NCBI GenBank assembly: GCA_964036295.1
Contig: OZ038464.1
Span: 12,634,001-12,698,000 of the forward strand
Direction of reading: 5' to 3'
Length of the DNA: 64,000 nt
DNA from: Plumapathes pennacea
Taxonomy: Eukaryota; Cnidaria; Anthozoa; Antipatharia; Myriopathidae
The position numbers and the translations under genes are program-made. This document shows positions 32,301 to 62,071 of this stretch, piece after piece. The notes beneath the pieces are model-generated. The model was given only the letters and a program-made list of their open reading frames with translations. It did no database searches and was not told the DNA's origin. Each line of letters begins with the position of its first letter. Position 1 is the first letter of the stretch.

Positions 32301-35300
32301 TACAGCACACCCTCTGTGTACTTGTCGACGAAAGTAAACACCTTGTCCTACCTCGCCAAGTTGTTATTGAACTTATGAGTGAGCAGGAAATCAAGCCTTA
32401 CCTCTACAGGGTTCCTTTTACGTTTGTAAACTTTCGAGAGCTGTTTTTGTCCCTTGGCTCCACCTCTGTCGTAACAGTTGACCAGTACGCTGCGGTGCTG
32501 ATGGCGATACACCAAGAAAGTGGCGGTGAAAAACTGGATCCCAACGAAATCACGAAAGCTTTTAGGGCAGTGAAAGGACTCTTTGAAAAGTTGGAAGAAG
32601 ATCCTGACAAGGGCATTGAAGCTGATGCCCTTTACCTGCCAGGAGCCAAGAAAGATGATCCATCTCGAGTGTTTCTCCGAAGATCTATTACGCTTGTCTT
32701 TGATAATGCTCCACAGTTTCGATATCGTATAAGAGGGTTGGATGAAATGCTTCTCGTAGACCTCACACAGTGTCACCTGAAATCAAGCAACTTCGAAATG
32801 TTGGTTGGAATGCTACCAGAAGAGCTAAGACCCAGGATGTTGACCTCTTTGGTTCAAGAACGTCTCACTGGATCATGCGAGGGATTGCAATTACGAGGGA
32901 AAGCCCAGGAATTGAGTCAACTTCTTACAAGCCAGCCGTTTTCCCGTGCGATCGTCCGGTTGATTCGCCATGAAGATCACAAAGGGGGGAGAAGAACCGA
33001 TGATGGTATTCTGGCAACAGTTCAGAGGAGTTTAAGTGGCATCCGGCTTCATGGTGTTGAGGTTCTGAAGACTCACTTAGTGTACCAGGGAAAGGTTATT
33101 CCAGGAAGTACAATGGTACAACCTTGCTTCGCTGAGAAGTCCGCTAAAGATGGGGAAGTGTGGAATGTGTACATTGCAACTTCCGGCCGCGAGAAGACCT
33201 GGATTTCACAAGTTTCAAAGATTGTGAACGAGATTACAGGCGGCCTCCTGCAAGGATCATTGGTCTACCTTCCTGAGCTCTTGACATGTGCTCCTCTAGA
33301 GATATGGCCCTATTTGGATGTGCAGGGAATCCGTGAAGACAGCTCCTATGACTTCGATGAGGTACTCTACCTCCCAACGCCTGGTACGTTTATTCGTATT
33401 GAAGATCACCATTTGCTGAAAGACGAACTGGAAGACTTCGACCCTGGAGAATATGTTGGCTATGAAGTCGACGATCCAAGTCTAACGAGTGAGGACGACG
33501 CTGCAACATACATCTACGCTGTGATAATCGAAGAAGTCCAACTTGAAGAAGCGCACGTTGTTTCATTTTGGAGGAAGAGGTACAAGATTAACATAGGAAA
33601 TGACAAAGATCCAATCGAAGTCGATGCTGTGGATCTGTACAAGTTCCGCCGCGTAAAGGGTCGGGAATTGGTCCCTTACGAAGGAGATGAAGGAGCCTCT
33701 GCTAGCTCTGCGCCCAAGGACTTGAAAAAAGCAATGGACGAAATCACAAAGTTGCTTGAAGAAGCGTGGAAATTGCCGAAAGAGAAAAGAGACAAGATCA
33801 TCAAACGGCTCTACCTCACTTGGCATCCAGACAAGAATCCAGGAAATGAAGAATTTTGCACCAAGGTATTCCAGCACCTCCTGGTTGAAATCGAACGACT
33901 TTTAGGAGGGACGACATCAGCATCACTCGGGAATTACTACCACGGCGGTTACGGTTCATGCTTTAGTAGATGGAATAATCGCGCACGGACACACCGCGGG
34001 TACCACGACAACTTTCAGGGATATCACTGGAGCTCAGGATTCCGCTCTCACGGAGCCAATCCACAGCCACGCGAGGCAAGAAGATGGCTTCGTCAAGCCA
34101 AAGCTGATCTCGAGGCTGCCGATAACGACATTGGTGGAGGAAAACCATCCTACGAATGGGTTTGTTTCAAGTGTCATCAGGTGATGAATTCACTTTTGTT
34201 TTGCAGCTTTACTACCCCCCACTACCTATTTTGTTGGCTTTTTACCGGTTTCCAGACAACTGCTTTGGAAGCTTTAAAGAATCCTCCTAAATTATTCGTT
34301 TTCTCTGACGTAGGGTTCACTGCTTGGAACATCGCTTGTTGATATCCAGTGATCACAGCGTATAGTGTGTTCCACCAATTGTTAGATATGTATCATCACT
34401 GTCAACGCTTCCAAAATTCTTTAATTATTTTGCTTATTTTTAGCAGCCTCGCACATTTATATCATTCCTTTAATTGCTTTCTCTTGTTTTCGTACGGGTG
34501 GAACGACTTCCTTTTCTTCTCTGGGTCATTACATTTCTTCAGTTGTCACTCTTTTTTTTTTTGCGCTGGTCCTGTTTTTAGACTTTTGTATTACGAATGA
34601 AGCACTGCAGCAAGAATTTTTATTTGAATTGCGCTATTTCAGATGCAACACTTGCAGTTGATTTGGTTATAAAAGAGATCTTTTACTCTGGAAAGCTACT
34701 ACTTCAAGCAATGAGGCACACCAATCACAATTCAAACATTGAAACAAGTTATTGGAGTTCGAATGGAACAACTGGATGAATTGTCTTTCTGGCTTGTAAA
34801 GGCTCCAACAACGACGAGTCATTTACGAATACACGCATTAATTCTAACCTATATTTATCATCTTCCAAATTAGTGACTCCTCTTTTGCATCGTCCAATTT
34901 AGAACTCGTGTTCTTTACAATAGCTCTTGAGCTATATCAGCGATACCAGCTTCCATTTCGTTTTGTTCTCTTTCGTTTATTTGATGTCAACATCCCGGGT
35001 TTGCACCCAGTCCAGGATGTAACGATGACCTATTTTTGGTCAACTCGACTAAGAAACTTCTTTTTAGGCTCTTTAGTTTAATCTCTGAGATGTACGTCTA
35101 AGGCTTGGAAGTGGAGCTGCGTTTATCTGGGCTGGACTTGACTCAAGTCAGCTTTCCTGATCAGGCCAGGCCTTCAGTCTCTGTAGATCATGTGTGGCTG
35201 AGCATCTCTGGGCATTAAGACATCGTCGCCATGTTGGGTGGAACAATATATGGAACAATGATCTTTTGCCAACGTTTATCCAACATAGCCGCCATGACGT

Positions 35301-35659
35301 CACATGGAAACCAATAATAAGTAAGCGTGCTTGGTTTTTTTTTTTTTTTTTTTTTTCATGTCTGTGAAGGCGGCGGAGAAGGCCCTAAAAGCAGCGCAGT
35401 ACGCTAAAGATGCTGACAAAACCTATGAGCACAACCTTTCCTTCATCGCCAGTGATCTTGATGATGCTGAACTCAGCAGCTTGGCCTCTAGACTGGAGGG
35501 ACTTTTGGGCGGCTCAGCACGCATGCGCTACCCAGACCAGACAGGTTTTCACAAGATTCCCCACGACGTGTATGATCGTCAAATGGCAATTCAAGCCCGC
35601 GACTACGCAACGAGTATCCTTACGGCGGCGGAAAGATTCATTGATTCGAGGATAACATG
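11313..35659 (+). CDS. Sacsin-like giant co-chaperone, gene A
   Basis: Coding exons are 11313-11316, 14853-14953, 16930-17040, 20305-20452, 20960-22522, 23166-34180 and 35370-35659. Phases agree at all junctions, giving about 4,410 codons (human sacsin is about 4,580). Domains: sacsin repeat/GHKL ATPase 1 (residues ~12-640; [11 protein letters not shown] and [15 protein letters not shown]), repeat 2 from ~1376 ([26 protein letters not shown]), repeat 3 from ~2412 ([26 protein letters not shown]), J domain with HPD at ~4196, and HEPN from ~4280. No ubiquitin-like N-terminus is seen. Known sacsin acts with Hsp70 in the cytosol in proteostasis and cytoskeletal organisation. Start: ATG 11313 is the only ATG after an in-frame TAA in the same exon. 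A paralogue (gene B) follows downstream on the same strand. Confidence 0.9.
12234..14610. mobile_element. Inner CCCCTTACC element, rich in CCATATATGGG words
   Basis: It begins CCCCTTACCGAA and ends TTTGGTAAGGGG. The ends are packed with CCATATATGGG-like palindromic words (12255-12560 and 14370-14600). The middle includes the 72-bp tandem array. Some unrelated sequence (about 12600-13840) lies between. No ORF with known motifs. Confidence 0.6.
13849..14376. repeat. 72-bp minisatellite, seven full units plus a partial
   Basis: Units start at 13849 and then every 72 bp (13921, 13993, 14065, 14137, 14209, 14281, 14353). They read TTAACCATATTTTGCCCATA, then ATGTCCTCTG and ATATGGGAAATG. Because 72 is divisible by three, the minus strand stays open as a 24-residue peptide repeat ([10 protein letters not shown]...). 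This is most likely incidental. Confidence 0.95.
14853..14953 (+). CDS. Gene A exon 2, start of first sacsin ATPase repeat
   Basis: Entered in phase 1, left in phase 0. With the upstream ATG-G it encodes [20 protein letters not shown] then [15 protein letters not shown], the helix that precedes the ATPase N-box in sacsin repeats. The gene B exon 53270-53382 encodes the homologous segment ([20 protein letters not shown]). Confidence 0.88.
15290..16640. mobile_element. Old repeat copy in gene A intron 2
   Basis: Its left part (TCAGATATCC...TGTAGTGGGTTTTCAGG, CTTGGAGATTATTT) parallels 38145-38560. Its right part (GAAGTATCTGAGTTT, TTTACGGCTAGCATGCTTGCC, ATTACAGCCGTTCATCGAAC) parallels 41310-41540. 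It therefore belongs to the same family as the elements between genes A and B, but is more decayed. The ORFs at 15294-15566 and minus 16340-16636 fall inside it and are not host genes. Confidence 0.6.
16930..17040 (+). CDS. Gene A exon 3, ATPase N-box
   Basis: Thirty-seven codons, phase 0 at both ends: [20 protein letters not shown] then [19 protein letters not shown] and DA of [11 protein letters not shown] are the GHKL N-box residues that bind Mg-ATP. The gene B exon at 61961-62071 has the same length and differs at only a few residues. Confidence 0.93.
17575..17935. repeat. Dispersed repeat, copy 2 (first at 5880-6290)
   Basis: It shares CTGATTGGCTGAGAGCAT, CAGTGCAAAAATGTGAAAT, AATTGAAAATGATTGACAGC and GTGATTACCTATAC with copy 1. 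Non-coding. Confidence 0.6.
17999..20201. mobile_element. Transposon with TGTAAC-repeat termini and OTU-like ORF
   Basis: The left end TGTTACGCCCCGAAATGTAA and the right end with GCGGCGTAACA are inverted. Both about 200-bp termini are arrays of spaced ATGTAAC / GTTACAT words with GCGAAA or GCGCTAAAGGA spacers. CAGGG occurs immediately outside both ends (17994-17998 and 20202-20206), which looks like a 5-bp target duplication. The interior holds a minus-strand ORF (18579-19334) and a GGGTAG/CCCGGGT-rich inverted region at about 19445-19990. It sits in gene A intron 3. Confidence 0.8.
18579..19334 (-). CDS. OTU-like cysteine protease fragment inside a transposon
   Basis: 251 codons from the ATG at 19334. 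The ORF is open further upstream (to about 19405) without another clear start. The N-terminal third reads [20 protein letters not shown], then VVISSLG, and later [17 protein letters not shown]. This resembles the C-terminal half of OTU-type deubiquitinase domains, including the GEHYV strand that carries the catalytic His. The N-terminal half with the catalytic Asp/Cys is not seen, so the protein is partial or needs another exon. The remainder is Ser/Asp-rich and unrecognised. Its position between the inverted termini suggests that the transposon carries it. Confidence 0.55.
   Translation of the reverse strand: MRDRHSFHGCVVWSTIDHLTLQAAAELYNVAFVVISSLGPAATAVISPMNSFPICTFYLSHFAEGDGEHYVGLQNNPAWHDMATLSPAIRLPGSTNTLDQQPFSDSSGSINEGPPDVHWHAQEEVDQRPESDRDDRPSSRTSDLPVQSEMPIGNNPLLSYESTSAEVHPTVLNEDILEHIIQQTLTLFPYMRQALRAVSRRYLEISLIKNLHRWYTYQNLTISQIFDRLACEKLCPSKERQAGRLFDFARS
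20305..20452 (+). CDS. Gene A exon 4, ATPase G1 box
   Basis: Phase 0 in, phase 1 out. It encodes [20 protein letters not shown] through [28 protein letters not shown] is the G1/ATP-lid glycine motif of Hsp90-like folds. The donor is GTAATA. Confidence 0.93.
20453..20959. other. Gene A intron 4
   Basis: A plain AT-rich intron ending in TTTCTTTCTAG. No repeat or gene recognised. Confidence 0.6.
20960..22522 (+). CDS. Gene A exon 5, rest of first sacsin repeat
   Basis: A 1,563-nt exon, phase 1 at both ends, with acceptor TTTCTTTCTAG and donor GTAGGT. It begins [18 protein letters not shown], continuing the ATPase, and includes LFRFPLR and [20 protein letters not shown], the conserved sacsin signatures after the ATP site, followed by [16 protein letters not shown]. 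The ORF extends upstream of the acceptor, but that part is intronic. Confidence 0.92.
22523..23165. other. Gene A intron 5
   Basis: AT-rich with a short poly-A tract near 22775. The acceptor is TTGTTTACAG. No other feature recognised. Confidence 0.6.
23166..34180 (+). CDS. Gene A giant exon 6: sacsin repeats 2 and 3, J domain, start of HEPN
   Basis: A single 11,015-nt exon, uninterrupted, entered in phase 1 (Gly codon split) and left in phase 0 at CAG|GTGATG. Repeat 2 begins near 25365 (N-box [26 protein letters not shown]). Repeat 3 begins near 28471 ([26 protein letters not shown]). Each is followed by the sacsin signature FRFPLRTK and then CYLPLPL / CFLPLPF with VHVNGFFA or VHINGHFA. The J-domain helix II/III loop [14 protein letters not shown] (HPD at 33824-33832) comes near the end, and HEPN starts at [16 protein letters not shown]. 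The open frame runs on to 34342, but that tail is intronic because the next exon completes HEPN. Confidence 0.95.
34181..35369. other. Gene A intron 6
   Basis: No gene. It ends with a long T tract (35336-35356) before the acceptor GTGAAG. The short ORFs at 34349-34779 have no motifs. Confidence 0.6.
35370..35659 (+). CDS. Gene A exon 7, HEPN domain
   Basis: It follows CFKCHQ of exon 6 in phase 0 and reads [20 protein letters not shown], then [20 protein letters not shown], and ends [18 protein letters not shown] plus [12 protein letters not shown] is the classic sacsin HEPN helix. A donor GTTAGT follows at 35660. If it is not used, the frame continues to a stop at 35763-35765. If it is spliced to a strong acceptor at about 36365, TG joins A to form TGA. 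Confidence 0.85.
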
Positions 35660-36365
35660 GTTAGTACAACAAATTTATTTACTGTTTTGTTGTTGTTTTA
35701 GGCCTAGTGCTCTTGTCACTGCCAAAGGAGAATTTTTGCGGTTTCCTTCGTGTTTTTGCGAATAAATCCGCTCCGAGTCGGTGAATTGTCTTTATTTTTT
35801 CCTCATTCAGTTAACTAAAGCCGAGAAAAGCCGACGTTTATTTTAAAGAACTTCTGTCAACAGAAAACCAAATGAGAGAAAAAATGGATTTCCTGCAAAA
35901 CGTGTTGACAGAATTTTACCAAATTTATTTATTTACTTTGTCGCTTTCCGTACACAAAACAATTGTGCAAAATTTCAAAACAATTCACGGAAGGAATATG
36001 AATATAACTAACTTTTTCCCGCAATCACTCACAACAGGTGACGTTTGTCGCCATGGTTACCGATATCTGCTCACAATTTATGAGAACACTCTTCATAAGA
36101 ACTCAATGCCATAGACATAAAACCCTTTTGAGAAAGTAAACGCCGATTAAACTAAACAGCAGGTCATTTCCTGGTCTATAAACTGCCAGAAACTATTACG
36201 AGCCACCTTAAAGCGTGCTTTTGGGACTATTCCGTCTTTTCCTATTCCGGGTAATCATGTTCTTTTGGGACCTATTCTGATTCCGGAATGAACGGAATAG
36301 TTCCAAACGATTGCACCTTTAGCACAATCTTCTTTCACACTTTATTTTCTATTTTCCTTTGTAGA

Positions 36366-38551: not shown

Positions 38552-38584
<33 letters not shown>

Positions 38585-42140: not shown

Positions 42141-42149
42141 CTGTCGCCG

Positions 42150-43456: not shown

Positions 43457-43694
43457 GTAAGTTCGATTATCGATTCATATTTACCCGCATGCAGAATTTG
43501 TACAACTGCACTTCTTTCCCTGCCGAAAATTGATTTGCCTCATGATATGGTCGATATACAGAAACTTATAAAAGTTTCAATTTAATCGAGGCTCGGGAAT
43601 CGAAGTTGATAGACGTCCCTAAGATGGATGTTGGTCATTTTGAACAACACCCATTGAGTGATCAATTCAGGAGATTTACGTAGTATTTTTTAAC

Positions 43695-45369: not shown

Positions 45370-45470
45370 TAAGTCAACAACCCGGATTTCCTTTGACAAT
45401 TCGCTGGAAACTTCCCCACATTTTACGGAGCCCCTTAGGTTTAGAGTTAAGTTTAGTTTGTCTTCAATTA

Positions 45471-45664
45471 GGGTCCGGTCACACAAGGAAGTTTTAGTCA
45501 ATAATAACTCAGCATCGAGAGCAATACGACGGCTTTGTAATTCAATCAGTTTGCCGGTAGCAGCTTGCTGACATATATTTCTGGTGACAAGTGCTGTTTG
45601 TACTTCAAATGATGCAAATATTGATATTAATGTCGTTAAAGTTAATACGAGTGTGACCGGAGCC
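45471..45664. mobile_element. Harbinger-like MITE, GGGTCCGGTCACAC family, copy 1
   Basis: The ends GGGTCCGGTCACAC and GTGTGACCGGAGCC are inverted, and TTA is duplicated at 45468-45470 and 45665-45667. The 194-bp body matches copy 2 at 52281-52459 (AACTCAGCATCGAGAGCAAT, GACAAG.GCTGTTTG.ACTT). Confidence 0.88.
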
Positions 45665-45699
45665 TTAATTACTGGTCGTGGGTCTTCTGTCCATTCAAT

Positions 45700-47090: not shown

Positions 47091-48230
47091 TAATTTTATA
47101 ACATGGATCGGAGTCGGCTTATAAAGACCACGTTTAGCCGTTTTCCGTTAAGCATGGCTATTGTTTAAACTACCCGGTCTGAACCTTGTTTAGAAAATCC
47201 AAAGGGTTTACTTCAAGGTACACGGACCTTAGGTTTAGTAATACCTCAAACGGCTTGTTAGACAAGGGTCAAAACAGCTTTCCAACCCGCCGCAGACATT
47301 CTAAATCTTGAAAGAAAAATCTGCCTAAATAGTTCAAGTTCTAATTGTGCTTGAGCGGAATGCGGTAGCCGAAAGTGGCGACAAAAAATATTCGTTTTAG
47401 CGAATAAAATCACTTGCCCGTAACGTAAACAAAACCTTCGTTGGAGCAAGTAAAGGTGAAGTAATACGGACAACATTTTCTTGCAACTTGTCGCCCAACA
47501 AATTTGCGTAGCAAGTTGTGGCAACATGTTGCAGAAAATAGACTCGACTTCTTAAACTTCTTTAACGACGTTTAGCTATCCCACGTCGACTTTTGCGGCA
47601 GTTGATTCGTCAAACAATTGAATCTAGTACTTGGGAGAACTAATTTTAGACTCGTCGGCGTGGAGAAAAACGTATGATGAATCAACTCGGGGTTCGATGT
47701 GTAAAATCTTGACTCCGTTAAGAATTATATTTTAAAATTTATTATACGTTTGGTCTTTGCAGTGTTAGCCTAATGTTTTGGCTTCTGCAGTAGTTAACCC
47801 TTTCGCTTCCAGGTTTATAATGCAGGCTATCCCTCTCCATTCAAGAAGAAAATGTATGAGTCAGTGATGTAATGAGAATTTATGTTTGAAGCAGCTTAGT
47901 TTCATCTAAGCAATCTATCAAATGCCAAATTCTCTTTACCTAATGATATATGTATCTAGTGAAAGACTGAAAGAGAAAATTGGCGATAACCCATCTTAGG
48001 AGTGGAATGGTTAAGTCTTTTGATTGACATAAATCAGAGTAGCTTCCTCTAATAAGATACAGAACTCACAACTCAATGTTTGTTGCGCAACCATGCGTCC
48101 GGCGTTTACCACTGGAATGGGATGGGAATACACTTTTCTTCATAAATCGCATTAACGCGGTTCCAGAAATTTTCCTGAAATCTAATCAGTCACTTATCTA
48201 TGAAATTTTTTACTGCTTTGTTTTAAACAG
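47091..48230. other. DNA immediately upstream of gene B's start exon
   Basis: No coding exon is recognised. It must be intron (if a 5' exon lies further up) or promoter. The minus ORF of 89 codons at 47258-47527 has no motif. Confidence 0.4.
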
Positions 48231-48547
48231 GCTCTTGCGAGCCATGGCAACGAATATTGACGTGCAATATCGAGGCGGGGTACCGAGTTTGAAAAAGCTT
48301 AGCGACCTGTCGAAGGAGCTCAGTGACTGCTGGGTTCCCTTGGGGATTCAACTTGGTGTAGGCGGAGCTGCAATAGAGGGCATTAGGAACAATAATGTTC
48401 AGTACGCCGGTCCTCAAGACAAAGCTTACGCGATGTTAAAGAAGTGGCATGACAAGGGGAGAGCTTCAAATTACTGCGAGTTGGCAAAAGCCTTGATCCA
48501 CGAAGGCAGGCAGGGCCTCGTGGAAAAATACTGCGAAGTTGCTAATG
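48231..48547 (+). CDS. Gene B exon with Death domain
   Basis: The acceptor TTTTAAACAG comes 13 nt before ATG 48244, and the donor GTAAGC follows CTAATG. The 101-codon product starts MATNIDVQYRGGVPSLKKL and continues SDLSKELSDCWVPLGIQLGV, IEGIRNNN, then DKAYAMLKKWHDKG and ALIHEGRQGLVEKYC. The pattern L..LS.EL...W..LG.QLGV...IE.I....DKAY.ML..W......Y..L...L...GR..L...YC is that of a Death-fold domain. The exon ends in phase 1. Confidence 0.85.
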
Positions 48548-51500
48548 GTAAGCTATGGTTGGTGTAGTATTTTGGACAATAAAGAAAGAGAATATAATGA
48601 CATGTCTTAAGGCCTGTGCAAGTGAACGCAACATTGTTGGGTAGATGTTGTGTGATGTTGGCTGAGGGTGTTCAAATGATCACAACATGTTGGGCAATGC
48701 GTGTACGGCGAAACTGTATAGGGTTCTTGTCATCCGCCAAGTTATGTAGCCCGATGAATATGGACGATGGAAAACGCGAAATCGCAGGTTTCTGCTCTTA
48801 ATATCGCATGAAGCATTTAGTGCACACGCGCGAGCCCTTACAATGTTGCGTGAACCGTGCAAACGATCCCAACATGCTGTGACATACTTCATTGATCATG
48901 AAAAGTTAACTGGTTTCAGACTTCGCGCGACATTACTACAATTATGACGAACCTGTTAACCTTCAAACGTACGAGCCCCACCACCGTGGGAAATAGGGGG
49001 CCGAATGAAACCGCTCTCTGGGTTCAACTTGTATTAAGATAGCTTCAGAAGATTAGACCTTCAGTATGTTTTCTGTACTTTTCGACCTATTTTGTTGAAA
49101 GGGTCAGGAATTTTCAGATCCAATGCCCTAACTTACCCCTATCTCCCTTTATGGTTGAAGAGGTCACACATTTGGGACACAGCGGAAAACGTCCTTGACA
49201 TCACTTCCGTTGATCAGCGTTCGTCACCAATACTGTTTAACTTCCTATCATTCGAAGTAAAATTTCACCTCGTGTGCAAGCCTCGTTTTTCTTTAAACAA
49301 CTTATGTTATAGATAAGGCATCGAACTATTTATAGTATAGAGTATCGGGTCCTAGTTTTGAGTTTCCTAGCTTAGTCTTGAAGTTACTTGATACATTGTT
49401 ACGTGATACATTGTATGGGTTCACACTACGCGGCTTCTAATCGATTTCGCGGGGAAGGATTGTGTTTAGACTGGTGACAAAGAAACGTTATGTATAACTC
49501 AGCAAGGCTAACAAACCTATACAGTCCGCGAGCACGACCGTTGGTTATATAGCTCGTTTCGCAAAATACAAATTTAACTCGCCATTAAAATTCGAAGCGC
49601 AAGTAATACTCTATATACGTCTCTTAATGATTCCTGAAGCCGTCAGCGTTTGTTTATCTGTCGGCTGTACACTTTTCCATTTATATTAGGTCGTCATTCT
49701 GCTTATTTCGTTTCATTTCGTTTCGTTTCGTTTCGTTTCGCAAAATACAGTAAGCTGTAAGATCGAATGAAACGTCCGTGTTTTTTTTTTTGTTTTTGTT
49801 ATCACACATTTGTTTTTAAACAAAATATCAAAATATCCGTTTCTGTTCTCAGATTTCAATATTCTCCTTCTTCGGACTGTCCCGGCGGCTTTCCATTTCC
49901 ATCATTTCCCTACGGAGGGTTTGAGAATGCGAATCCACGTTTAATGCGTTTCGACCTGGAGAATAGCGGAGTTGGTTTTCTGATTTATGTGACTTGGCTG
50001 TCTTTTCATTAGGACACACTTCGTTGATTTCCCCCGGACCTTGTCTGACAGGTGGGGCGCGATTTATAAATTACTGAGTCAATTTTCAAGTCGCGAGTCA
50101 TAACGCATGTGAATTACGCACTTGTAAACAAATGATACCAAGTCAGACTTGAAATGTCTCTGACTTAAGTCAGTGAACCCATACATTGACTGCTGACTAA
50201 AAAATAACAGGACTGCACGGCCGAAAAACGTTTTTCCCCAGTGTCAACATTTGGGTTTCATTTAAGAGTTGGAAATATTCAAAATTAACTGCGCCTTTGA
50301 TAATGAAAACTTGTTTACAGATCGACTGATGAATTCTGAATTAATGCACCCACTGAATTTTTGAAATTGTGCCCCCATCCTCAAAAGTCAGCATCAGACT
50401 GTAGCTTTGGATGCAGAGCGGACAGCTCAAGTCAGTTTCTTTTAACTAACGTTTATCAGTTAGACGCCGGATTTAAAGAGTGTACTATTTCAGTATTATT
50501 AAAACTTTCATAATTTTATCTGCCATTTTCAATCGATTTTTTTTTCTTTTTTTCATTAGCTGGTGCAAGTCTTCATGTCAATGTAAGAGGCCACAGTGGA
50601 GTTCAGAGGGATGGAACAAACCTGGCCGAACCGCCAGTTGAGGAGATCATGAGAGCAATTACTGCAAGCTATTTGCAGTCATCTCCCCCTCAGAATATTG
50701 AAGACCATCATAACTTATTCGCGTATTTGCGAGATGTTCGAAATCTTATTGTTGGCCCAGTGGTGTTATCAAGCCTGCGTATAACAGTAAGGTGCACGTG
50801 TCTGGAGATACTGGAGGATCTATGGCAGGATTACACCAGTGGGGCGCTTAACAAGGCTGCCGAAAAATATCTAGTTACAGATGAAGTTCTCAAGAAGTAC
50901 AATCTCAAACACTTCAAGCTTGTGACGATTATAGACGAAGAAGAGTACAAAAGGTGTAAAAAGGACCTCAAAGAAATGGAAGGTAACTATGGAGACTGTC
51001 ACTCACAGAGAGCGGGAGCATAAAACAGCCAGATTGATAGAAAGTTCATATTAGTAGATATTAGAGGTCATCACAGTCCCACAGCTGAACTTTGGAAGTG
51101 CAGTCAAATGTGCAACGATTTAAGTGCGCTACAGATAAAATAATATTGGAGCAGATGTACGTACAGGACGAGTAACAAGTATTGCTTGATTTAAAGCTGG
51201 GGTGTATGTTGTCGGGGTTTCTTCTATTCCAAATAGACGGATAACAAAGTAGAGGAGGGTAGATGAAAGGAAAAACACTGCTTAACTTTGCCAAAGGCTT
51301 ATATTATGATTGACAGGTGTAAACAAACAGCTAAGCAGTGAACTGTAGTAGAACCGTCCGTCGGTGACCACCCTTGGTGCCAGGCATCGGTGGCTGTTTT
51401 ATACGTGAAGTTTTGTCGAAAGAAATTTGACTGAAAAACCCCTAAAGCGAGGCCTTTCCACTACACACTGAGAATCTTGTGTTGAACTGACGTGTAGATT

Positions 51501-54500
51501 GGTCGTTTTCAGAATTATTGTGTTTTCAGTGAGTTGCTACCACTTTTTCTCTCCTCCAGTCGAACATGTTTCCCTGCAACTATCATTCCTTTCATATTAA
51601 CTGTTTTAATAATTAAATTTTATATCGACTCTCACATTTTTAGGAAACCAGGACAATCCTTCAGCTTCTGACTCCGAAGCAAGGCGTTTTCAAACACCCA
51701 CGTCTAAGATACCCGAGCCTAATCTCCCCCCGCAAAAACCTGCTACTTTTTATGCGAAGAAGATAAGGGATGTGGCAGGTATGCAGGAGGAAACTCCAAT
51801 GCCAAGAATGACAAGTGCAGGTAAAGTGCAAAGAACGGTTACGTTGGTATTTGTGTCAGTCTTTAGGGGGTGTTTTATGACATGGTGGTACTTCGATCAA
51901 ATTTGAGAACCAAAAAGGTTCAACACGGATCGAATCTACATCACCTGGTTCCATGTTTTGTATCGACCGTATAGTCCGTCGTCTGTTGTCCAATCCTTTT
52001 TGGGATTCGCCATGTTGTAGAACAGCTCATGCAGTTTCACTCGGCGCGATGAAGACAACGTCGTTCAGCCACTTACACCATTGACATGGCGAAGAAATTG
52101 ATAAGCCCGGGAGGATCTTCGATTGGTTTAGTGCTCTTCTGACACGATGTAAAAGTATCGATGCAGTTATGATGTTGTAATCAACTTTACTGGCAACTTG
52201 ACTATGTGCTTAATACACGGCTATAGACTTATAGCGCATTGCATTATGACGTATGTTGGCAGCTATATTCGGGAACTTAAGGGCCCGGTCGCACTAGAAA
52301 GTTTAGTCGATGATAACTCAGCATCGAGAGCAATACGACGGTTTCTTCAATGTTCGGTAGCAACTTGCTAACATATATTTCTGATGACAAGCGCTGTTTG
52401 CACTTCAAATGATGCAAGTGTCGATATTAATCGTTAAAGTTACGAGTGCGACCAAAGCCTAAGACAAAAAGAAAACAAAGGGCACGTGAATGTGAAATTG
52501 ACGTTATGTCGGGGTCGTGGTGCTCTCGTGTGTGACTTTAAATGCTTCTTTTTAGGTTGTTTTCAGGACATGGACCGTCATTTTGAGAAATAACGACAGT
52601 CGTTCTTCTTAGTAAGAGACGATGAAGGAAATAAAACTTCGACAAAAACGGAACAAATTTGAGCAACCTATTAAAAATAGGGAAAGTTACAAAGACAAGG
52701 AATACGAATTCACATTTTTGCTGGTTCCTTGCGTTGCCGTCGCCGTCCTAGTTTGCATCACGTTTTAATTTGGTTTTCAGATACACTCATAAGTTGTTCT
52801 ATAAAAGTATTAGGGCATACGTTAGTGTGCTATGTTGAGTTATAGAAGCATGCGGGAATTTTAAAGAATCAATCGATGTCCTCTCGACTTTTTATGTATT
52901 TGGTACGAATGAAAGAACTGTGAACATAAAGACGCGTCTTGAAATTTACAGGGGTCAGGGAATTCCGGAAGTTGTGGGGGGGGGGGGGGGGGGGGGGGGG
53001 GGGAGGGGGGGTAAAATGAAACCCCCTGGAAATGGAAATTCCTAGAGGGGAGCCTTCAAAAGGATTTCCTCCGTGGTCGGGTATGGATAGTTTCTGGAAC
53101 TACACATTCGTCCCTTCATCTGTTCCATGCATTTATAAACCACAACCAAAACAACGAACCCAAATAGCATTTGTAGCACTAAAATACCTCTTTCTGGGTT
53201 TACACAAATTGATTTTAATTTATGTCAATTATGTATAATTGAATGACATCTGAGTGTTCTTCTTCACAGAGGACATCTCCACTGACTCATCTGATGATGG
53301 TTTTGACATGATACAGCCTACATTAATCCAGAAGCTTAAAAAAATTTTGGACCAGTACCCTGATGATGGGCAGATTCTTAAGGTGAGACACTGTGGTTTG
53401 TTTTCCCATACCTACAATGGAAAGTTGGGTCTACCTGGCTTTGCAGAGTACATAAATGGTCTGCCTTTGGCATAGAGATAAAACATATTTCAAATGTGTA
53501 TTATTAAAACCTTGAGGTGTTTTGTTACTTAATATAGCTCTAATGCTCATGAAAACATCAACTTACATGCTTTCCCTTGCAGCTACTAAAAGTGCTGAGG
53601 TGTTGATGCAAATAATCACAAACACTTGAATGGGTGGGTGCAAGAGGGCCCTATGTAGATTTTTACTCTGCTCTTTTCCACATAAATTACTTATGAAGTA
53701 CTACGTAACAAGCAAAGTGGACAGAAAAAAAGAGCAAAAGAAAACAAAAACCTGCTTAAAGACGTTCGCGCGGATTGTTTATGCGCACATTTTCTGCGCA
53801 CGTATTAACAATGGATGACGCAATGCAAGGTCATGCACGTGCGGCGCAGATGTTAACAAAACATGGTTCTTGGATACTATTCGTCAAAATAACTTTCTTA
53901 AAAGTCTGGTGACCTCTACTTTTCTTTTAGTAAGTAAGTTTCTCACCGATCCTCTAGATAATATTTTTAAAAAAATCTGAAAGTTAAGTTCTTTAAAAAT
54001 CCACTTTTACACTCCTGCGGACACTAAAACATCGGTCACGGAAGTCTTCAAGAAGCTGCAAAAATGGCTATCGACACCTTATCGGGCCTCAGAAAAGGTC
54101 TTAAATTGAAGTACTTTTCTTAATGTACCCATTAAGTTCAAATTCGATCATTGCCGATGTTCGAAAGACATTTTTTTTCTGTTCATAAACAAGCGATACC
54201 GACGACGACTGGAATGACCAAATTTGGCAATTCATGACACCAATTATCCCCGAAACGAGTCCGGTGACCCCGATATTTTTTTGCATTTCATGAATTAGTT
54301 TATAATAATGTAACTATAGCAGAAATTTTAAAAAAGTCTGAACGTTAGAAGTCTTTGGTTGATCAAGAGAGCCTCCGATAAAGAATCGGTAAATGTCGGT
54401 GAAACTCGTTAAGCCGAAGCTGACAAGTCGCCAAAGTAACAGCTAATCAAATGAATCAAATCTGGGGCAATTCAATAAACATTTACACGTGTATTTTACG

Positions 54501-57500
54501 AGTTAAACCATTATTCAAACACAAATAAACGGATTCTTGTCAAGCAAGAGTCTGCAAAATATTACAGATACCGGTCTCACAGGCATAACTGTAACAGTTT
54601 TTAGCCGTGGTAATGGGCAAAGTGTGTCTTAACGTACAGAGGAATTAGTCGAACTTGTAAAATGCACTTTAAATGCTGTATTTGATTTGCCCCTGGTTGT
54701 TCAAAGCATGAACTTAGGCTAACCTTTCCAAAAATTAGCAATTTACTTTATGTTTTGGCTAGTTTCCTTTAGCCCGGCTCTGCCACATATGCGAGAATCG
54801 AAAATACACTTTGAACACCGCTGCCGCCCGTACGGACCGAGTGCGAGGTCAATAAATGATTTATTATATGGCTTCAATGTTTTATACTGCAAAACATAAA
54901 CCAAGAAGCACTTGACCAGTTTGCGTGCGTACGCAACCGGCGTATCAACTATTTAAAAATTGATTTGTAGTGATGTAGCTCTCCATTTCCTTAACTCGAA
55001 ATACTTAAGAGAAAGAAGCAGCTAATTTACTGTATGGTTTGAGTTGAACACGATACTTTAAGTGCAAGCCGTATCCACAGTGACAGTCACACAGTAAACC
55101 CGTCACGATGACAAAAGTTTAGCTTTTTTTCGACTTTTCAAGTGTTCCTTGTTTGAAAATAAACAAGCACTTTGCAGCTTAAAACAGTAAACGTATTCTA
55201 ATTCAATTTTTTCGAATGCATTTATTATCACACATCACACAGGCATTCAAAGAAAACATTCAAGGAAAAAATTCACGAAGAAAATTCAATAGCTCAACTG
55301 GGTCTCCCTTAAAAATCAAAACTCACCCATCTCTCCCCAGCTTAATTCTCGCAGACTATTCGTCCATCACAGTAAAGATAAACATCAGTTTCGTAAAATC
55401 TTCGATGATTTGAAATGAAATCGCTTTCATTCATTGTGAAATCCATACTTGCAGTGTTTACAGCACAGCTACTGCTAGCGGCGCCACGATCGCAAAACAG
55501 TGTGGCCGACAAACATTCCATCTTCTCAGACTCGTTCACGGTGACTGTTCACATTCTTTGGCCGATCACTTTGCTTTCCTTCCACGTTGAACCATCCAAG
55601 TTTTTGGGCAAAGAGCTAATCTGCCGTTCACGATGCCACAAGCACCGGCAATACAGGTCGAATCTTTTCTCCAACTGTTGACTTGTTGACTTGTCTCCAA
55701 CTGTTGCACGTTTTTCCCGTGAAATGGATTTATCTCCTTTACAGATTCTCGTTGTACCGCTTTGGTTCAGCACAGACTTTATCAAAACCAAAAAGCTGCA
55801 CAACCTCGTGTGTGAAACTTTTGACAAACATATTAACTGTGACCGTAACGGTCCATCTGCCCGGTCCGTACTTAAGCAATATAACACGAGTTTCCATGTC
55901 TTCTATTTTCCTTCGAGTTTCTATGTACTATATGAACACGCGGGATATTGGGCGAACACGAGAAGAAGGTCAAAATCACGAGCCGCTTCAGCGAGTTGTT
56001 TTTCTCGTGTTCTCCCAACATCCCGTGTGTTTATATAAGAGTACAAAGACATGGAAACTCGAGTTATATTGCTTAAAATAAATAAAGCACGCTCCTCCGT
56101 GTTTTGTAATATTTAATGCACGCTTACGCCATTCTGTCAAAGAAAAACTCACGTGTAGTTCTTGGCTTTAAGTGAAAGACACCGGCTATTACGGTATGAT
56201 CAAAGCAGTTCACGTGAATCGGTAAACGTCTACATCAAAAAGCACTTTAACAGTTTGGAGAGGGAAAATCTACGTCAAAGAACGGCCGCGGGGCTTATGG
56301 TATTTAGCGAAACGAAACGAAACAAAACCTGGAATGAAGTAATACACAAATAAAAGACGTTTCAGTACGAATTCGCGAGTCGGTTGCCCGACCGGTTGGT
56401 ATTCGCGGCAAAGCAAAGTTTAATACGTTTCCAACAGACGAAGCATGGAAGAGCTAATTTGATAAACATAGAACAATAAATAAACTGACCGACAGCGAAG
56501 TGATCAAGCTAACGAACCAATCATAGAATGCTTCATTTCCATCATGGACCGGTGAGCCATGTAATACATTTAATTAAGGCCCAGGTTAAATGTCGATCTT
56601 AGCATGCGTCGAACTCAGTGCGTATAAGCAAACTTTATTATATGACTGTGACGTAGTTTTACCATATAAGGTCGCAACAGAGTGCCGGTACGGGAGCGTA
56701 TTAGACACTTCAAATCCGTATTACACTGTAGAAAACCGGTTTGACCGGTTTAGACGCGCGCGTATCACAAATGAATCAAAGATTTTTCTGAGTGCAAGGT
56801 AAAACGGTGCAACGAAAGTCTATGACTTTTCAGATACAAGACCCTTCCATCGAAAGAAACTGTTACTGGATAATTTGTCAAGGAAGAGAAAACACAGTTC
56901 AGTTGGTGGAAAGCGAGCAATCGCCATGGACAAACGGCAGTTCTGACTCCGTAAAGTTTTCCGCACGATGCCGTCACTGTAAACACTGCAAAATGATTTT
57001 CGCCGTGTGCGAACACTGTTTTGAGTGGTTCCTTTGCTGGAAGGGGTCTTAAATTTTCTACAACCAGGCAGGAAATCGGTGAGTTGTTAACAATCTAACT
57101 TGACAACGTGTCGGCGGTAAAAATCCTAGTTGTGTTATGAAAGTTTCAGATTCTTCAACGTACACATTCGCTGGCTCTGTTCTTGTGTTTATTCCTTAAC
57201 TACTCCGAGAAAATAAAAATCCTGTTTTGAGTACAAAGCTGCTTGCTATTGAAGAACAAAAATGGTTAAAAGTTTAAGCGAAATGATCGATTTCAACCGC
57301 TCGAAGCACGTTTGTTCGCTGAATATTTATTCTGTCGAAGCAAGCATTTTCGTCTCCAGCGCATTTATCTCAGCACATTTAATCTGAATTGAACTTCGAT
57401 CATTTGGTGGCATAACTTCTTTAATTTTCTCTGTCAAGATTTTTTAAATCGATGACCGGATTGGAAGCTGTAAGTGAATCTTTGTGTAAATGAGTGTGCG

Positions 57501-60500
57501 TACATTTTGCCTGGGATTGAATGAAAACAGTTTTGCTCGAAGTCTCTGTTTTATGTTTGCTGAAATATATTTTATATAAAGGTAAAACTACGTCACAGTC
57601 ATATAATAAATCCCTCATTCGATGGTTTAGCGCGTAATACGGGCCGGCATTTTACTCGTTACTAGCATTTTTCCTCGCCCCGCGGCGGGGCTCGGAAAAA
57701 TACGAGCAACTCGTAAAATACCGGCCCGTATTACGCGCTAAACCATCGAATAAGATTTATATATTGTTTGAGTTAATTTGCATTGAGTTCGACGCATGCT
57801 AAAATTATGAATAGTTTCATGCTTAGCGTGCGTCTATCGAGTTATGGATGCACGCGGGAAGTTGGGAGAACACGAGAGAAGCGGAAGAGTTTCTCGAGGC
57901 GTAGCCGAGTTTTTGGGACTTTTTGGTACTCCCAACAAGAGCAGCTTTTGTTTTACCGAAATGTTGACTCAATCTTTTCTTCGAAGTCAAGTGCTACTCG
58001 CAAAGGAAGGAGAAAAAATATGGTGTGTGTTATACTTTTGCGTTGAAAAAAGAGTCGATTTGCGTGACGCTGTTCTTATTTCCCACGGTTGGCACGTCAA
58101 ATTAATTCATACAGTCTGCCAAGCGTTCTCAAAATTTAATACTTAAAATTTTACTTAAAATTTGAAGTTGGTCGGCCGCCGTAGTACGGGAAAAATAAAA
58201 CACTGATTTTCCAATTTTTAATTCATAGGCAGTACAATAAAATAGGCTTCCTGTGCGGTTTTTTAACTCTGTACTGCATGCAACCAGACTCAGGCATCCA
58301 TATGTAATGAGCGCGAATTGTTTTGTATGTGAACCCGCTAAAAACAGCATAATTTCTCCCAGAATCAAAGCAAAACTCGCACGGTTTACTTTAAATTATA
58401 CACGGGCTTCAGACCTAGTCATACTTAAAAGGGCTTGTGAACGATTCTCGCTGCAATCACCGCGTGTCAGATTACAGCATTTGTTACAGTTTTAGTCTTG
58501 AAAGAAAAAAAAAAGACATCTGACTAAATCATTCAAGACTCCAAGTTCGGATACGGTAGCCGAAACTGGCGACAGAAGCGCATAAACAATACTTCGAGGG
58601 AAGTGATCAGCATACAGATTTTAATACATCCTTGAAGTGATCGGGCTACAAGATACGGGTAGAATGTATTTGTCACGGTGATTGTTCGATTTCCACTGAC
58701 TAACCTTTGTTGTTTATCCTTTCTGAATAAGTATCTGAGTTTAACACTAAACGGCGTCTGAAATTCAAGCGCTGTTCCCTTTGTGGAGTATTTTCTTCGG
58801 CTCGTTTTTTCTCCTGAAGTTCCCGATTTGCTTTCAAGCGTTGTTCTCTTTGAAGAGTATTTTCTTCGGCCCGTTTTTTCTCCTGAAGTTCCCGATTCGC
58901 TTTCAAGCGCTGTTCTTTTTGCGGAGTTGTCTGTGTTACCCGCTTCTGTTCATGTCGCTTTTGGTCGGCACTCATGCGCTGTTGTCTTGGCGGAGTCTTT
59001 CGGCCCGCTTTTTCTCCTGAAGGTCACGATTCGCTTTCAAGCACTGTTCTCTTTGCGGAGTTGTCTGTGTTACCCGCTTCTCTTCATGTCGCTTTCTATC
59101 GGCATTCATGCGCTGTTTTCTTTTCGGAGTCGTTTCTTCGGCACGCTTCTGTTGATGATGCTCTCGGTCATAGTTCCGTCTTTTGTCAAGACGAACTTGG
59201 CGCTGTTTGATCGTTTCACGATTCCGCCTTGCTCGTGCCTGTTCCCTTCTCTTTTGAAGACGAGCTTCGCGAGACTGTTGTGTTTCAAGTTTTCCATTTT
59301 CGTGAACACAGCTACGATATAATGTAGTTGCTTCGTTCAATCTAATTTCTCTTATTGCTCGCGGGGACCTGGGGCCCAGCGCGACCTTAAAAATGCAAAT
59401 TTTTATTTTATCTTTTTCCTTTTTGTCGGTCGAGAATGGGCACACGGTGATTGGTTCATATTATCACGTGCTAGGCAATGACGTAATTGACTTCGCTAAA
59501 CAACTCGAGATGTGGCCAGTGAATTGCTCGTTACTTGTGTGTAAAAGTTAACTGCATCCCATCCAAGCTCAACACCATTTGGCTCTGTGGAATATGCACG
59601 GATAAACTGGATTTTCGGGAACGATTTTGGATCGCGTTCACCGCGGAAGCTTTGAGAATAGCCGTAAACAAATATTTGATGGATACCGCTGGGGGATTGC
59701 TAATATCTCTGTCGCCGATAAATATTTAGTCCCGACAAAGCTTTCTGTGGCGACACGAAATACTTTTGGGAAGATAACAGGGCGAAAACAGAAACCAAAG
59801 CTACGGTGAGCTTTAGCCGTAAAACAATGACGCTTTTTGCTTTACTATGTACATGACATGTTGCCTCATAAAATTCTTAGTCTGCGTATCGTACATTGCC
59901 TGTTGAAGTGTTTCTTTCATTCGATCATGTAGCCTTTGTTTTGCAATGTTCATTAAATAACAGAAATGAAAAATACACCGAAATAATTTTGAGGATTGAG
60001 TTTGCAGTCACAAATGGACTGAACACACTGTGAACAAAACCGCAATAATATTTTAAACATCTTTCGTGTGACATTCCTCGCTTTCAATTTTATATTTGTT
60101 ACAGAGCACGAATACTCGAAAGCTTGATAGAAGAAACGTACTGAGTTAATAAAAGAAGAAACATAAATAGTGAAGCGAAGGCTGGATTAATCGTGGCCTC
60201 TGATTAGAAAGAGTCAAGGTCAAACTGTCATAATCGATTGTGCATAAAAAGATATGTCACGCATTCTCAAGATGCAGGGTCGCTCAAGCAAGTGTATGAG
60301 TGTTGTAATAATAATTTTTAGTTTAATAAAAGTGTCAAAAGCCAAGTTCTCTATACTGTGTGATATTTTTATGGTGAGAAATTGGAAGTCTCTCTTGGGA
60401 GTTCCGCTCTTGTCCCCTACTTTCCATTTTATATTCTGGTCTCGACCCAACTCACACCGCGAGCTCACTGGCAGGGCCAGTCTGATTGCGAGTAAAACTA

Positions 60501-62071
60501 CAGGGCCACACGTGATCGATCCGGCCTTTGTTATTGGTTCTGCAGCGACACGATAGGAACTGGGGACGAGGTCGCACGACAGACTGACAGACGAACATTA
60601 GATCTCGAGATGGCGACCCGCTTGGAGTCTCCGATAAGGCGATAATACTACTGCATTAGCGTCGTGAGTATTTCCCTCACTTCGTTCGGGGATAACATAG
60701 ACACACGAAATTACGAGCGAAAACAAATTTTCATTTCTGATTGAATGCAAAATTCTCTTTCGACGCGCAAAAGGCAAAACAAACTCTCTCATTGGATGAT
60801 TGAAAACACGCCACAACTTACTAACATTTCTGCCAGCTAAAAGTTGATGAGTGTCGATGAAAAAGATGTCGGTTAATCGACGAAAACACTGAAAGTACTG
60901 TTAACCTGGCGTGGTGAAAGCCAGCAGCCTTCGGTGACTTTGGAATTCGTGACAATGTAAATGTTTTGAACGGTACAATTGTTGAAGATGAACTCTTCAA
61001 GTCGCCGCTTCAAAACAACGTGAGATTCACCTTGAACTATAGCAGACAATGCGGGTCTGGAGAAGCAAAGTGATCCGTCGAAGAATGTAAACAATCACCA
61101 TAAGCGAAAGAGATGGAAATGTTTGCCAAGCGGACTTGTTTGTTATTCGAGCTGCCAGCAAACTGTACTGTAAACACAAGTATAGCGGCTTTCGAAATGA
61201 ATGAACGCCGTTTCATTGCAAAGCCATTGAAGGCTTGACGGATATTTATCTTTGCTGTGATGGATTTCACTAGTCCATGAGAATTAAGCCGTCGAGAAAT
61301 AGGTGAGTTTTGATTCATACAATTTCCTGTGCCGACCGTTGAAATACAGAATTTTTCAGACTTGATTACTAATTTCCTTTGGGTGCCGGTTTGACTTCAT
61401 GTAGTACAAATTTCTTCGGAAAATAAAGCTATTTTCTTCTTAGTTGTAAAGCTTCTGTTAATTTATAAACGAGGAAAGCTAGAAAAAGTCGAAAGGAAGC
61501 GGCATTTGCTCACGTCATATTATTGAGCACGGGCGTGCACGATAAAGTTACGAAGCACGCTCTTCGACCAATCAGAACGTGGCTTATATCGCGACTATGT
61601 TATAATCGACGTTTAACCCGGGCCTAAGAGATGCATAAGGAAAAATTCCATAATCGTCCTCTAGCTATCCTCTAGCTATGAGGACAAAAATTAACGTATT
61701 TTTTAAAACATGATCATAAAGAGCTCTGGGCCGATTGCATAAAAACCATGAAAATTCACATTTTTATTCTTAGGAATTTCTAGGAGGTCCTAGCCTAATT
61801 TCAGAAAGGAAATTTTTACTTTCCAGACATTGAATGGCAGAGGTAGCTGGATCAGATATTGATGTTCTTGCTATGACGATAATGGGTACATTCTTTTTGC
61901 TTAGTTTTATAGTGTAGCTGGTGTGTAGTCATCTCAAAGATTATGATTATTGTCACGTAGGAACTGATCCAGAATGCTGAGGATGCTGGAGCCTCCAAAG
62001 TAAAGTTCCTGTGTGACTATCACAGACATGGTACAGAGAAACTCCACCACCCAGGACTACACAAGTTCCAG
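48244..62071 (+). CDS. Death-TRADD-N-sacsin fusion protein, gene B (3' part outside window)
   Basis: Exons: 48244-48547 (Death domain), 50560-50982 (TRADD-N-like), 51644-51820 (linker), 53270-53382 and 61961-62071 (start of a sacsin ATPase repeat). All splice phases agree (1,1,1 and then 0). This gives 376 codons in the window, and the frame is open at the last donor, 62072. The next expected exon ([12 protein letters not shown] G1 box) is not found before 64000. Death domains and TRADD-N are adaptor modules of TNF/NF-kB-type signalling, while sacsin repeats are Hsp90-like ATPases. The fusion suggests a signalling chaperone or an immune receptor-like ATPase. Whether one transcript joins all the exons is inferred from phase and order, especially across the 8.6 kb transposon-filled intron. 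Confidence 0.72.
48548..50559. other. Gene B intron after the Death exon
   Basis: AT-rich with a TTTCG microsatellite and an extended T tract before the next acceptor. I see no other gene or clear transposon. Confidence 0.5.
49705..49741. repeat. (TTTCG)n microsatellite
   Basis: About six TTTCG units with one TTTCA variant, in gene B's first intron. Confidence 0.9.
50560..50982 (+). CDS. Gene B exon with TRADD-N-like domain
   Basis: A phase 1-1 exon of 423 nt with acceptor TTTTTTTCATTAG and donor GTAACT. After ASLHVNVRGHSGVQRDGTNL it encodes PVEEIMRAITASYLQSS, then LSSLRITVRCTCLEILEDLW, DYTSGALNKAAEKYLVTDEV, and FKLVTIIDEEEYKRCKKDL. The order (beta strand with ECTSLE-like motif, LW.DY.SG.LN..AE..LVTDE, then beta T.I.EE.Y..CK..L) is how I recognise TRADD-N-like domains of cnidarian proteins. 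This is family pattern memory, not an alignment. Confidence 0.72.
51644..51820 (+). CDS. Gene B linker exon
   Basis: A phase 1-1 exon of 177 nt with acceptor CACATTTTTAG. It encodes a low-complexity, proline- and charge-rich linker: GNQDNPSASDSEARRFQTPT, then SKIPEPNLPPQKPATFYAKK and IRDVAG. An internal donor (GCAG|GTATGC at 51779) offers a shorter form in the same phase. The longer one ends GTAAAG at 51821. Confidence 0.6.
52281..52459. mobile_element. Harbinger-like MITE, GGGCCCGGTCGCAC family, copy 2
   Basis: The ends GGGCCCGGTCGCAC and GTGCGACCAAAGCC are flanked by TAA on both sides (52278-52280 and 52460-52462). The body matches 45471-45664. It sits in gene B's intron directly beside the third GGACG-family MITE. 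Confidence 0.85.
52463..52749. mobile_element. GGACG MITE family, copy 3, left-truncated
   Basis: It shares GACAAAAA.AAA..AAAGGGCACGTGAAT, GCTCTC, CAGTCGTTCTTCTTAGTAA, AACGGAACAAATTTGAGCAA and the right end TTGCCGTCGCCGTCC with 10437-10764. The left terminus is missing, cut where the neighbouring Harbinger-like MITE begins. Confidence 0.7.
52974..53011. repeat. Poly-G tract
   Basis: About 30 consecutive G with one A interruption, in gene B intron DNA. Such tracts are error-prone in assemblies. Confidence 0.95.
53270..53382 (+). CDS. Gene B exon, start of first sacsin repeat
   Basis: Entered in phase 1, left in phase 0, with acceptor TCTTCACAG and donor GTGAGA. It encodes EDISTDSSDDGFDMIQPTLI then [18 protein letters not shown], homologous to gene A exon 2. 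The acidic Ser/Asp stretch replaces MDASPAG of gene A. Confidence 0.85.
53383..55309. other. First part of the 8.6 kb gene B intron
   Basis: No gene is recognised. GCCCGTACGGACCGAGTGCG and TTATTATATGGCTTCAATG at 54830-54880 parallel 62200-62285 (CGAGTGCGCGGTCCGTAC, TTATTATATGGCTTTAGAT), another dispersed repeat. Confidence 0.5.
55310..55560 (-). repeat. Dispersed repeat family (further copies at 60880-61370, 62640-63130, 63640-64000)
   Basis: The copies share CTTAATTCTCG.(C/A)GA, CATCACA..AAAGATAA, TCATTCATT and a tract ending near TGTAAACACAAGTAT / ATACTTGCAGTGTTTACAG. Copies at 60880 and 63640 run plus, those at 55310 and 62640 minus. No ORF is shared between copies, so it is non-coding. 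Confidence 0.5.
55872..56076. repeat. Hairpin-forming inverted repeat
   Basis: TTAAGCAATATAAC at the left pairs with GTTATATTGCTTAA at the right. Inside, GAGTTTCCATGTCTT pairs with AAGACATGGAAACTC, and GAACACGCGGGATATTGGGC with GTTCTCCCAACATCCCGTGT. The core GAACACGAGA / TCTCGTGTTC recurs at about 57868. The arms are imperfect in the middle. The overlapping ORFs are artefacts. Confidence 0.75.
57617..57751. repeat. Near-perfect 135-bp palindrome
   Basis: The left arm starts ATTCGATGGTTTAGCGCGTA and continues ATACGGGCCGG.ATTTTACTCGT. The right arm is ACGAGT.AAAATACCGGCCC, then TTACGCGCTAAACCATCGAA. The centre is CCCCGCGGCGGGG. The arms of about 60 bp differ at only a few positions. A transcript would fold into a strong hairpin. 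It lies inside the GGCCCAGG element. Confidence 0.9.
57880..60710 (-). mobile_element. Composite STPR-ORF repeat, copy 3 (inverted)
   Basis: The reverse complement matches copies 1 and 2 block by block: CATTAGCGTCGTGAGTATTT with TTCGGGGATAA at 60655-60695, the STPR ORF at 58700-59445, GATTGTTCGATTTCCACTGA near 58680, AACTGGCGACAGAAGCG near 58564 and AATGTTGACTCAATC..TTCTTCGAA near 57960. A segment shared with 42150-42560 (59690-59960) is also present. Confidence 0.6.
58700..59445 (-). pseudogene. STPR-like ORF, copy 3, one frameshift
   Basis: Two overlapping minus frames (59445-58972, then 58975-58700) together give the longest STPR version: REARLQKRREQARARRNRET, then KRAEETTPKRKQRMNADRKR, and four or more further units ending KRAEENTPQREQRL and SERINNKG. 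A single frameshift at about 58973 separates them. The terminal ..AAAG|GTTAGT donor is conserved. Confidence 0.6.
61961..62071 (+). CDS. Gene B exon, ATPase N-box
   Basis: Thirty-seven codons, phase 0-0: [20 protein letters not shown] then [17 protein letters not shown]. It differs from gene A exon 3 at three residues (SY to RH, D to H). Both have acceptor ..TAG or TTAG and donor GTTGGT. This is the last exon of gene B in the window. Confidence 0.92.

What the first reader, a model, noticed from the sequence alone, without database searches (positions are those of the whole stretch)
48231..62071. Death + TRADD-N module fused in phase to a sacsin-type Hsp90-like ATPase
Seen: consecutive plus-strand exons encode a Death-fold domain, a TRADD-N-like domain, a linker, and then the exact N-terminal exons of a sacsin repeat, with compatible splice phases throughout. 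Known: Death and TRADD-N domains are adaptors in TNF/NF-kB-type signalling, and sacsin is a DnaJ/HEPN co-chaperone that normally begins with a ubiquitin-like domain or directly at the ATPase. Inference: this could be a stress- or infection-sensing signalling chaperone, with the GHKL ATPase used like the NTPase of an NLR. I do not know this architecture as a described protein.
Basis: partly seen in the sequence, partly recalled or inferred. Interest (0 to 1): 0.88.

Follow-up and report, generated by a model that had tools for sequence, protein, structure and literature searches.

The report
Coral sacsin gene with death-signalling head
A coral-like genome carries a giant chaperone gene (sacsin) whose front end appears to be a cell-death signalling module; relatives in two corals share part of this fusion, so it is a good example of a described class of animal immune proteins rather than a new invention.

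Summary
Five plus-strand exons (48244-48547, 50560-50982, 51644-51820, 53270-53382, 61961-62071) form one open frame with GT/AG sites and entry phases 0,1,1,1,0. Exon 1 is a Death domain (E=2e-9). Exon 2 scores below Pfam's TRADD-like_N cut-off (15.4 against 23.7 bits) but is homologous to the segment directly before sacsin in two annotated coral proteins, Stylophora P0026 (24.4 bits) and Oculina P0023. Human TRADD-N tops a structure comparison, weakly. Exons 4-5 begin a sacsin repeat. The TRADD-N-sacsin junction is thus not unique; the head differs: Death here, GT4 in Stylophora, HEPN_DZIP3 in Oculina. TRADD-N-sacsin fusions and Death-headed sacsins are in print (PMC8195603, PMC3710099). The exact trio was seen in 0 of 228 retrieved proteins. 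Likely role, inferred: an immune or stress protein whose Death/TRADD-N head couples a sacsin body to death signalling. The gene leaves the window, there are no transcripts, and the own genome could not be searched.

The parts
48231..48547 (+). Exon 1 of gene B: short leader, ATG at 48244 (gccATGg), Death domain; donor after 48547 (phase 1)
   Evidence: PF00531 2.1e-9 (on ORF 48043-48564); splice site and frame; acceptor-like tttaaacag just before 48231
50560..50982 (+). Exon 2: TRADD-N-like domain, 423 nt, symmetric 1-1
51644..51820 (+). Exon 3: linker, 177 nt, symmetric 1-1; optional, since exon 2 could also splice straight to exon 4
   Evidence: splice sites and phase only; no family; not similar to P0026's linker
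53270..53382 (+). Exon 4: start of the first sacsin repeat ([30 protein letters not shown])
   Evidence: about 64% identity over the exon 4-5 stretch to P0023 and P0026; matches gene A 14853-14953
61961..62071 (+). Exon 5: Hsp90-like N-box of the first sacsin repeat ([12 protein letters not shown])
   Evidence: PF25794 SACS 1.9e-7, just below cut-off; 93.75% DNA identity to gene A 16927-17054
14853..35762 (+). Gene A: tandem sacsin paralog, no Death/TRADD-N head detected. Pieces: exons 14853-14953 and 16930-17040; ORFs 20287-20505, 20836-22560, 23111-34339 and 35325-35762 (the last assigned by eye to the HEPN end)
   Evidence: SACS 8.9e-156 and HEPN 3.5e-6 in ORF 23111-34336, SACS 3e-24 in 20836-22557; no Pfam family in three plus frames of 3001-14966

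Best explanation
Gene B is a member of the marine-invertebrate TRADD-N family of presumed immune/cell-death proteins: a sacsin whose front carries a Death + TRADD-N module on exons joined by phase-1 introns. Shown: exon order, frame, phases, domain homology, and the same TRADD-N-sacsin junction in two annotated coral proteins. Inferred: the sacsin body (Hsp90-like ATPase repeats, perhaps with the DnaJ-like and HEPN parts seen in the relatives; not visible here because the gene leaves the window) binds misfolded or foreign protein, and the Death/TRADD-N head then assembles with other Death-fold and TRAF-type partners to start a death or NF-kB-like response. Fusion: about 0.8. This mechanism: about 0.35.
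For: One frame over five phase-compatible exons. Death E=2e-9. P0023 and P0026 are the top two of 510 hits to the gene B start and the only 2 of 229 held sacsin sequences with a TRADD-N match. The junction aligns (STDSSDDGFDMIQPTLIQKL / [19 protein letters not shown] / TAEKDDDGFDLIRPTLIQQL). Their sacsin parts form one clade at 100/100. PolyA-like hexamers between exon 2 and exon 4 are not enriched, 3 in 2.37 kb against 1.19 per kb in the window. Precedent: PMC8195603, PMC3710099.
Against: No transcript evidence. No retrieved protein has the exact trio: no match to gene B's Death domain in 229, best E=1.8. The TRADD-N profile score is under the cut-off and not the best in its scan. In a weak 72-residue tree gene B groups with gene A (87/73), not with P0023/P0026. 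Gene A's matching exon also enters in phase 1, so the phase does not by itself prove joining. The start-exon scan does not discriminate: 1 candidate (53032-53080) in 1.4 kb before exon 4, against 2 in 5.8 kb upstream of gene A, and stretches further upstream of gene B's exon 4 were not scanned. The linker exon has no homolog support.
Confidence: 0.55

Rival explanations
1. Two separate neighbouring genes: a short Death-TRADD-N adaptor (DEDD2-like) ending soon after exon 2 or 3, followed by an ordinary sacsin with its own unrecognised start exon.
For: The exon 2 frame runs 13 codons past the donor to a stop at 51021-51023. Phase-1 entry is shared with gene A. Several ordinary coral sacsins begin with M and a few residues at this point. 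One candidate start exon exists at 53032-53080.
Against: P0026 and P0023 are annotated as continuous TRADD-N-sacsin proteins, though these are themselves gene predictions. No excess of polyA-like hexamers between the exons.
Confidence: 0.17
2. Independent head capture: the Death/TRADD-N exons reached this sacsin separately from the Stylophora/Oculina fusion, perhaps helped by mobile elements. This differs from the best explanation in origin only, so both can hold.
For: Gene B groups with gene A in the 72-residue tree (87/73), where the TRADD-N label needs three changes. Copies of one repeat lie in opposite orientation on both sides of the module (46144-47048 and 57914-58807, 84% identical). 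PMC8195603 proposes transposon-driven fusion for this family.
Against: The junction is at the same place in all three genes. The tree is short and exon 5 may have been converted by gene A (93.75% DNA identity). A third copy of the repeat lies elsewhere in the window, so its position may be chance.
Confidence: 0.35
3. A non-functional or mis-assembled fusion (gene B is a decaying copy).
For: The rest of the gene is outside the window; intron 4 is 8.6 kb and holds a repeat copy.
Against: Five intact exons with usable sites. Exon 5 keeps 34 of 37 residues of gene A, and part of the base changes are synonymous: 4 against 3 in exon 5, 8 against 5 in the last 63 nt of exon 4.
Confidence: 0.08

Closest known systems
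Stylophora pistillata sacsin-like, P0026 (4937 aa): GT4 + TRADD-N + 3 SACS + HEPN
   Same: TRADD-N segment before the sacsin start; 41.5% identity over 106 residues of TRADD-N and 64% at the sacsin start
   Different: GT4-conflict glycosyltransferase head instead of Death; longer linker without detectable similarity
Oculina patagonica ACROYT_G025008, P0023 (4966 aa): HEPN_DZIP3 + TRADD-N-like + 3 SACS + HEPN, DnaJ-like below cut-off
   Same: TRADD-N-like segment (39% over 110 residues; 15.8 bits, below cut-off) then sacsin start (64%)
   Different: HEPN_DZIP3 head instead of Death; almost no linker
DEDD2-clade TRADD-N expansions in marine invertebrates (PMC8195603)
   Same: Death-like + TRADD-N constant part with a variable C-terminal part; sacsin is named among the fusions
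   Different: The paper says the Death-like domain is usually a DED; its figure 4 and source data, which would show the exact sacsin architectures, were not seen
Death-headed sacsin paralogs, e.g. sponge Amphimedon (PMC3710099)
   Same: N-terminal DEATH on a sacsin-like protein
   Different: No TRADD-N mentioned in the passages read
Vertebrate TRADD and DEDD2
   Same: Death-fold domain coupled to TRADD-N
   Different: In TRADD the Death domain is C-terminal, in DEDD2 the head is a DED (PMC8195603); neither carries a sacsin body (recalled)

Membership tests
Death domain (PF00531) | Profile match above the curated cut-off | tested here: met
   37.8 against 22.6 bits, profile 4-81 of 86
TRADD-N (PF20694) | Profile match above the curated cut-off | tested here: not met
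   15.4 against 23.7 bits; PF02059 Interleukin-3 scored 17.9 against 25 on the same ORF
TRADD-N (PF20694) | Homology to a protein that passes the cut-off | tested here: met
   phmmer 4.6e-19 to P0026, whose TRADD-N scores 24.4 against 23.7
TRADD-N (PF20694) | TRADD-N fold | tested here: inconclusive
Sacsin | SACS profile above cut-off in the exons visible here | tested here: not met
   Exon 5 ORF 31.6 against 32.8 bits; exon 4 ORF no match; each holds only a small part of the 247-position profile
Sacsin | Homology of the repeat start, with N-box, to known sacsins | tested here: met
   [11 protein letters not shown] in exon 5; 58-76% identity to named coral sacsins over the exon 4-5 stretch
Sacsin | Further repeats, DnaJ and C-terminal HEPN | not testable with these tools
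DEDD2-clade TRADD-N fusion family (PMC8195603) | Death-like domain + TRADD-N constant part with variable C-terminal domain | tested here: met
   Exon order and domains, TRADD-N by homology
DEDD2-clade TRADD-N fusion family (PMC8195603) | TRADD-N falls in the DEDD2 clade rather than the NCOA6 clade | not tested
   No clade references were fetched
NLR-like switch | STAND/NACHT NTPase between adaptor head and sensor | tested here: inconclusive
   Pfam lists no NACHT or NB-ARC in the visible exons or in full-length P0023 and P0026; the rest of gene B was not seen

The most novel reading that the evidence does not exclude
The N-terminal phase-1 intron of coral sacsins is a swap site: a conserved TRADD-N-sacsin core takes interchangeable heads (Death, GT4, HEPN_DZIP3) by exon shuffling, giving a family of sacsin-based immune receptors whose signalling or effector head is exchanged between species and between tandem copies.
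Probability: 0.35. Interest if true: 0.65.

Novelty: new member of a known kind. Interest (0 to 1): 0.42.

Why it matters
It shows at exon level how a stress chaperone can be wired to a death-signalling head, in animals where papers on heat stress, disease resistance and thermal selection mention sacsin (search listing only). If heads are swapped at one intron while the TRADD-N-sacsin core stays, that is a tractable case of immune-gene assembly by exon shuffling, and a way to test the 2013 suggestion (PMC3710099) that Death-headed sacsins link protein-folding stress to cell suicide.

Tried and rejected
A wholly undescribed architecture: rejected after PMC8195603 and PMC3710099. Literature searches made: sacsin with TRADD-N, with cnidarian and death domain, with coral, at least 4 of sacsin, TRADD, innate immunity, ATPase, death-like, with death domain, at least 2 of sacsin, lineage-specific expansion, cnidaria, with exon shuffling, sacsin-like with immune, N-terminal, TIR and fusion. 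I do not claim that the exact trio is absent from print.

A hidden head on gene A: three plus frames of 3001-14966 gave 0 Pfam families at E 0.1. A further module between the genes: three plus frames of 35763-48243 gave 0. Minus frames were not scanned, and such a scan would miss short exons. Linker homology to P0026: rejected. A homolog search with P0026 residues 225-500 returned only P0026 among 890 candidates and missed P0023, so it is insensitive. PDB sequence search: the Death exon gives RIPK1 (E 0.07) and Fas (0.18) among 8 weak rows, one of them a designed binder; the TRADD-N exon gives one chance-level row, a histone. Foldseek: 0 of 391 matches at E 0.001 or better, 1f3v rank 6 at E 0.14.

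The tree used 23 of 228 retrieved proteins, chosen as coral/anemone-type plus outgroups and unnamed close hits; the tool flagged long branches. Searches list 120 of 858 and 120 of 510 hits; the others were not inspected. One search admitted only proteins of about 1580 to 5030 residues, so shorter fusions would be missed.

Full report
What is there. Gene B on the plus strand starts with ATG at 48244 and reads without a stop through 48244-48547, 50560-50982, 51644-51820, 53270-53382 and 61961-62071, 1128 nt, with GT donors and AG acceptors and entry phases 0, 1, 1, 1, 0. Exons 2 and 3 are symmetric 1-1 exons (423 and 177 nt). Crude donor scores are 9.2, 8.4, 7.6, 10.7 and 6.0 (weights recalled from human donor frequencies).

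Relatives. Of 228 retrieved proteins plus gene A's body, 229 in all, 2 carry a TRADD-N match, both just before the sacsin start; none matches gene B's Death domain (best E=1.8). These two are the top hits when gene B's start is the query (1.9e-56 and 3.7e-54). Their heads differ: GT4-conflict in Stylophora pistillata, HEPN_DZIP3 in Oculina patagonica; both are scleractinians of the suborder Vacatina, in different families. Their sacsin parts form one clade at 100/100 in a 23-row tree, apart from other Stylophora and Oculina sacsins. So the TRADD-N-sacsin core was probably formed once in their ancestor and the heads exchanged or gained afterwards (inference). Several ordinary coral sacsins begin with M and a few residues at the same point. 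Whether gene B belongs to that clade is open: with 72 residues it groups with gene A at 87/73, and the TRADD-N label then needs three changes.

Neighbour. Gene A is a tandem sacsin paralog. Its exon matching gene B's exon 4 is 14853-14953; it too enters in phase 1 without an in-frame ATG. Hence the phase-1 intron at the front of sacsin probably predates the pair and is a ready entry point for 1-1 exons (inference). Gene A's first exon was not found; no Pfam family lies upstream in three plus frames. Exon 5 is 93.75% identical in DNA between A and B while no similarity of the flanking introns was reported, which suggests recent exchange between the copies or strong constraint.

One gene or two. 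For one gene: the annotated corals with the same junction, compatible phases, and no excess of polyA-like hexamers between exons 2 and 4. Against or neutral: exon 2's frame can run to a stop 13 codons past the donor, phase 1 is not specific to the fusion, the coral proteins are themselves gene predictions, and the start-exon scan does not discriminate (1 candidate in 1.4 kb before exon 4, 2 in 5.8 kb upstream of gene A). I put the fusion at about 0.8, resting mainly on the coral relatives.

What is known. PMC8195603 (section 11 and passages read) reports expansions of DEDD2-clade TRADD-N domains in cnidarians (17-168 copies), a constant Death-like + TRADD-N part, fusions to sacsin among others, and associations with retrotransposons. 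[quoted passage not shown] Figure 4 and the source data of PMC8195603 were not seen, so I cannot say whether the exact trio is listed there.

How it likely works. Inferred from the families: the sacsin body binds clients with its Hsp90-like ATPase repeats and may carry HEPN activity on RNA; Death and TRADD-N mediate homotypic and TRAF-type contacts. The simplest model is a sensor-effector that, when loaded, clusters its heads and starts a death or inflammatory-type response. It may work like an adaptor-headed sensor, but it is not filed as an NLR: no NACHT or NB-ARC was listed in the visible exons or in P0023 and P0026.

Mobile elements. Copies of one repeat lie at about 39267-41123 (plus), 45957-47096 (plus) and 57914-59345 (minus), 73-91% identical in their matching stretches; the last two flank the segment with exons 1 to 4 in opposite orientation. 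This fits the published transposon idea but proves nothing.

Coral proteins head the named matches, and with Branchiostoma, which points to an anthozoan (inference).

Noticed in passing
window 39267-41123, 45957-47096, 57914-59345: Three copies of one repeat with a coding-like stretch rich in R, E and Q; two lie in opposite orientation around gene B's first four exons.
   Followed up: partly
window 16927-17054 and 61958-62085: Exon 5 is 93.75% identical in DNA between the two tandem sacsin genes with no reported similarity of the flanking introns, which suggests gene conversion or constraint.
   Followed up: partly
window 257-511 and 2297-2608: Exon-like stretches with a P-loop-like [22 protein letters not shown] and an NKMD motif, perhaps an OBG-type GTPase gene upstream of gene A; motifs recalled, no family scan made.
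   Followed up: no
window 13846-14375: Tandem array of a 72-base unit, 7.4 copies, just before gene A's first recognised exon.
   Followed up: no
window 10485-10766, 43701-43889, 52469-52750: A short interspersed repeat family, one copy inside gene B's intron 3.
   Followed up: no
   Followed up: partly
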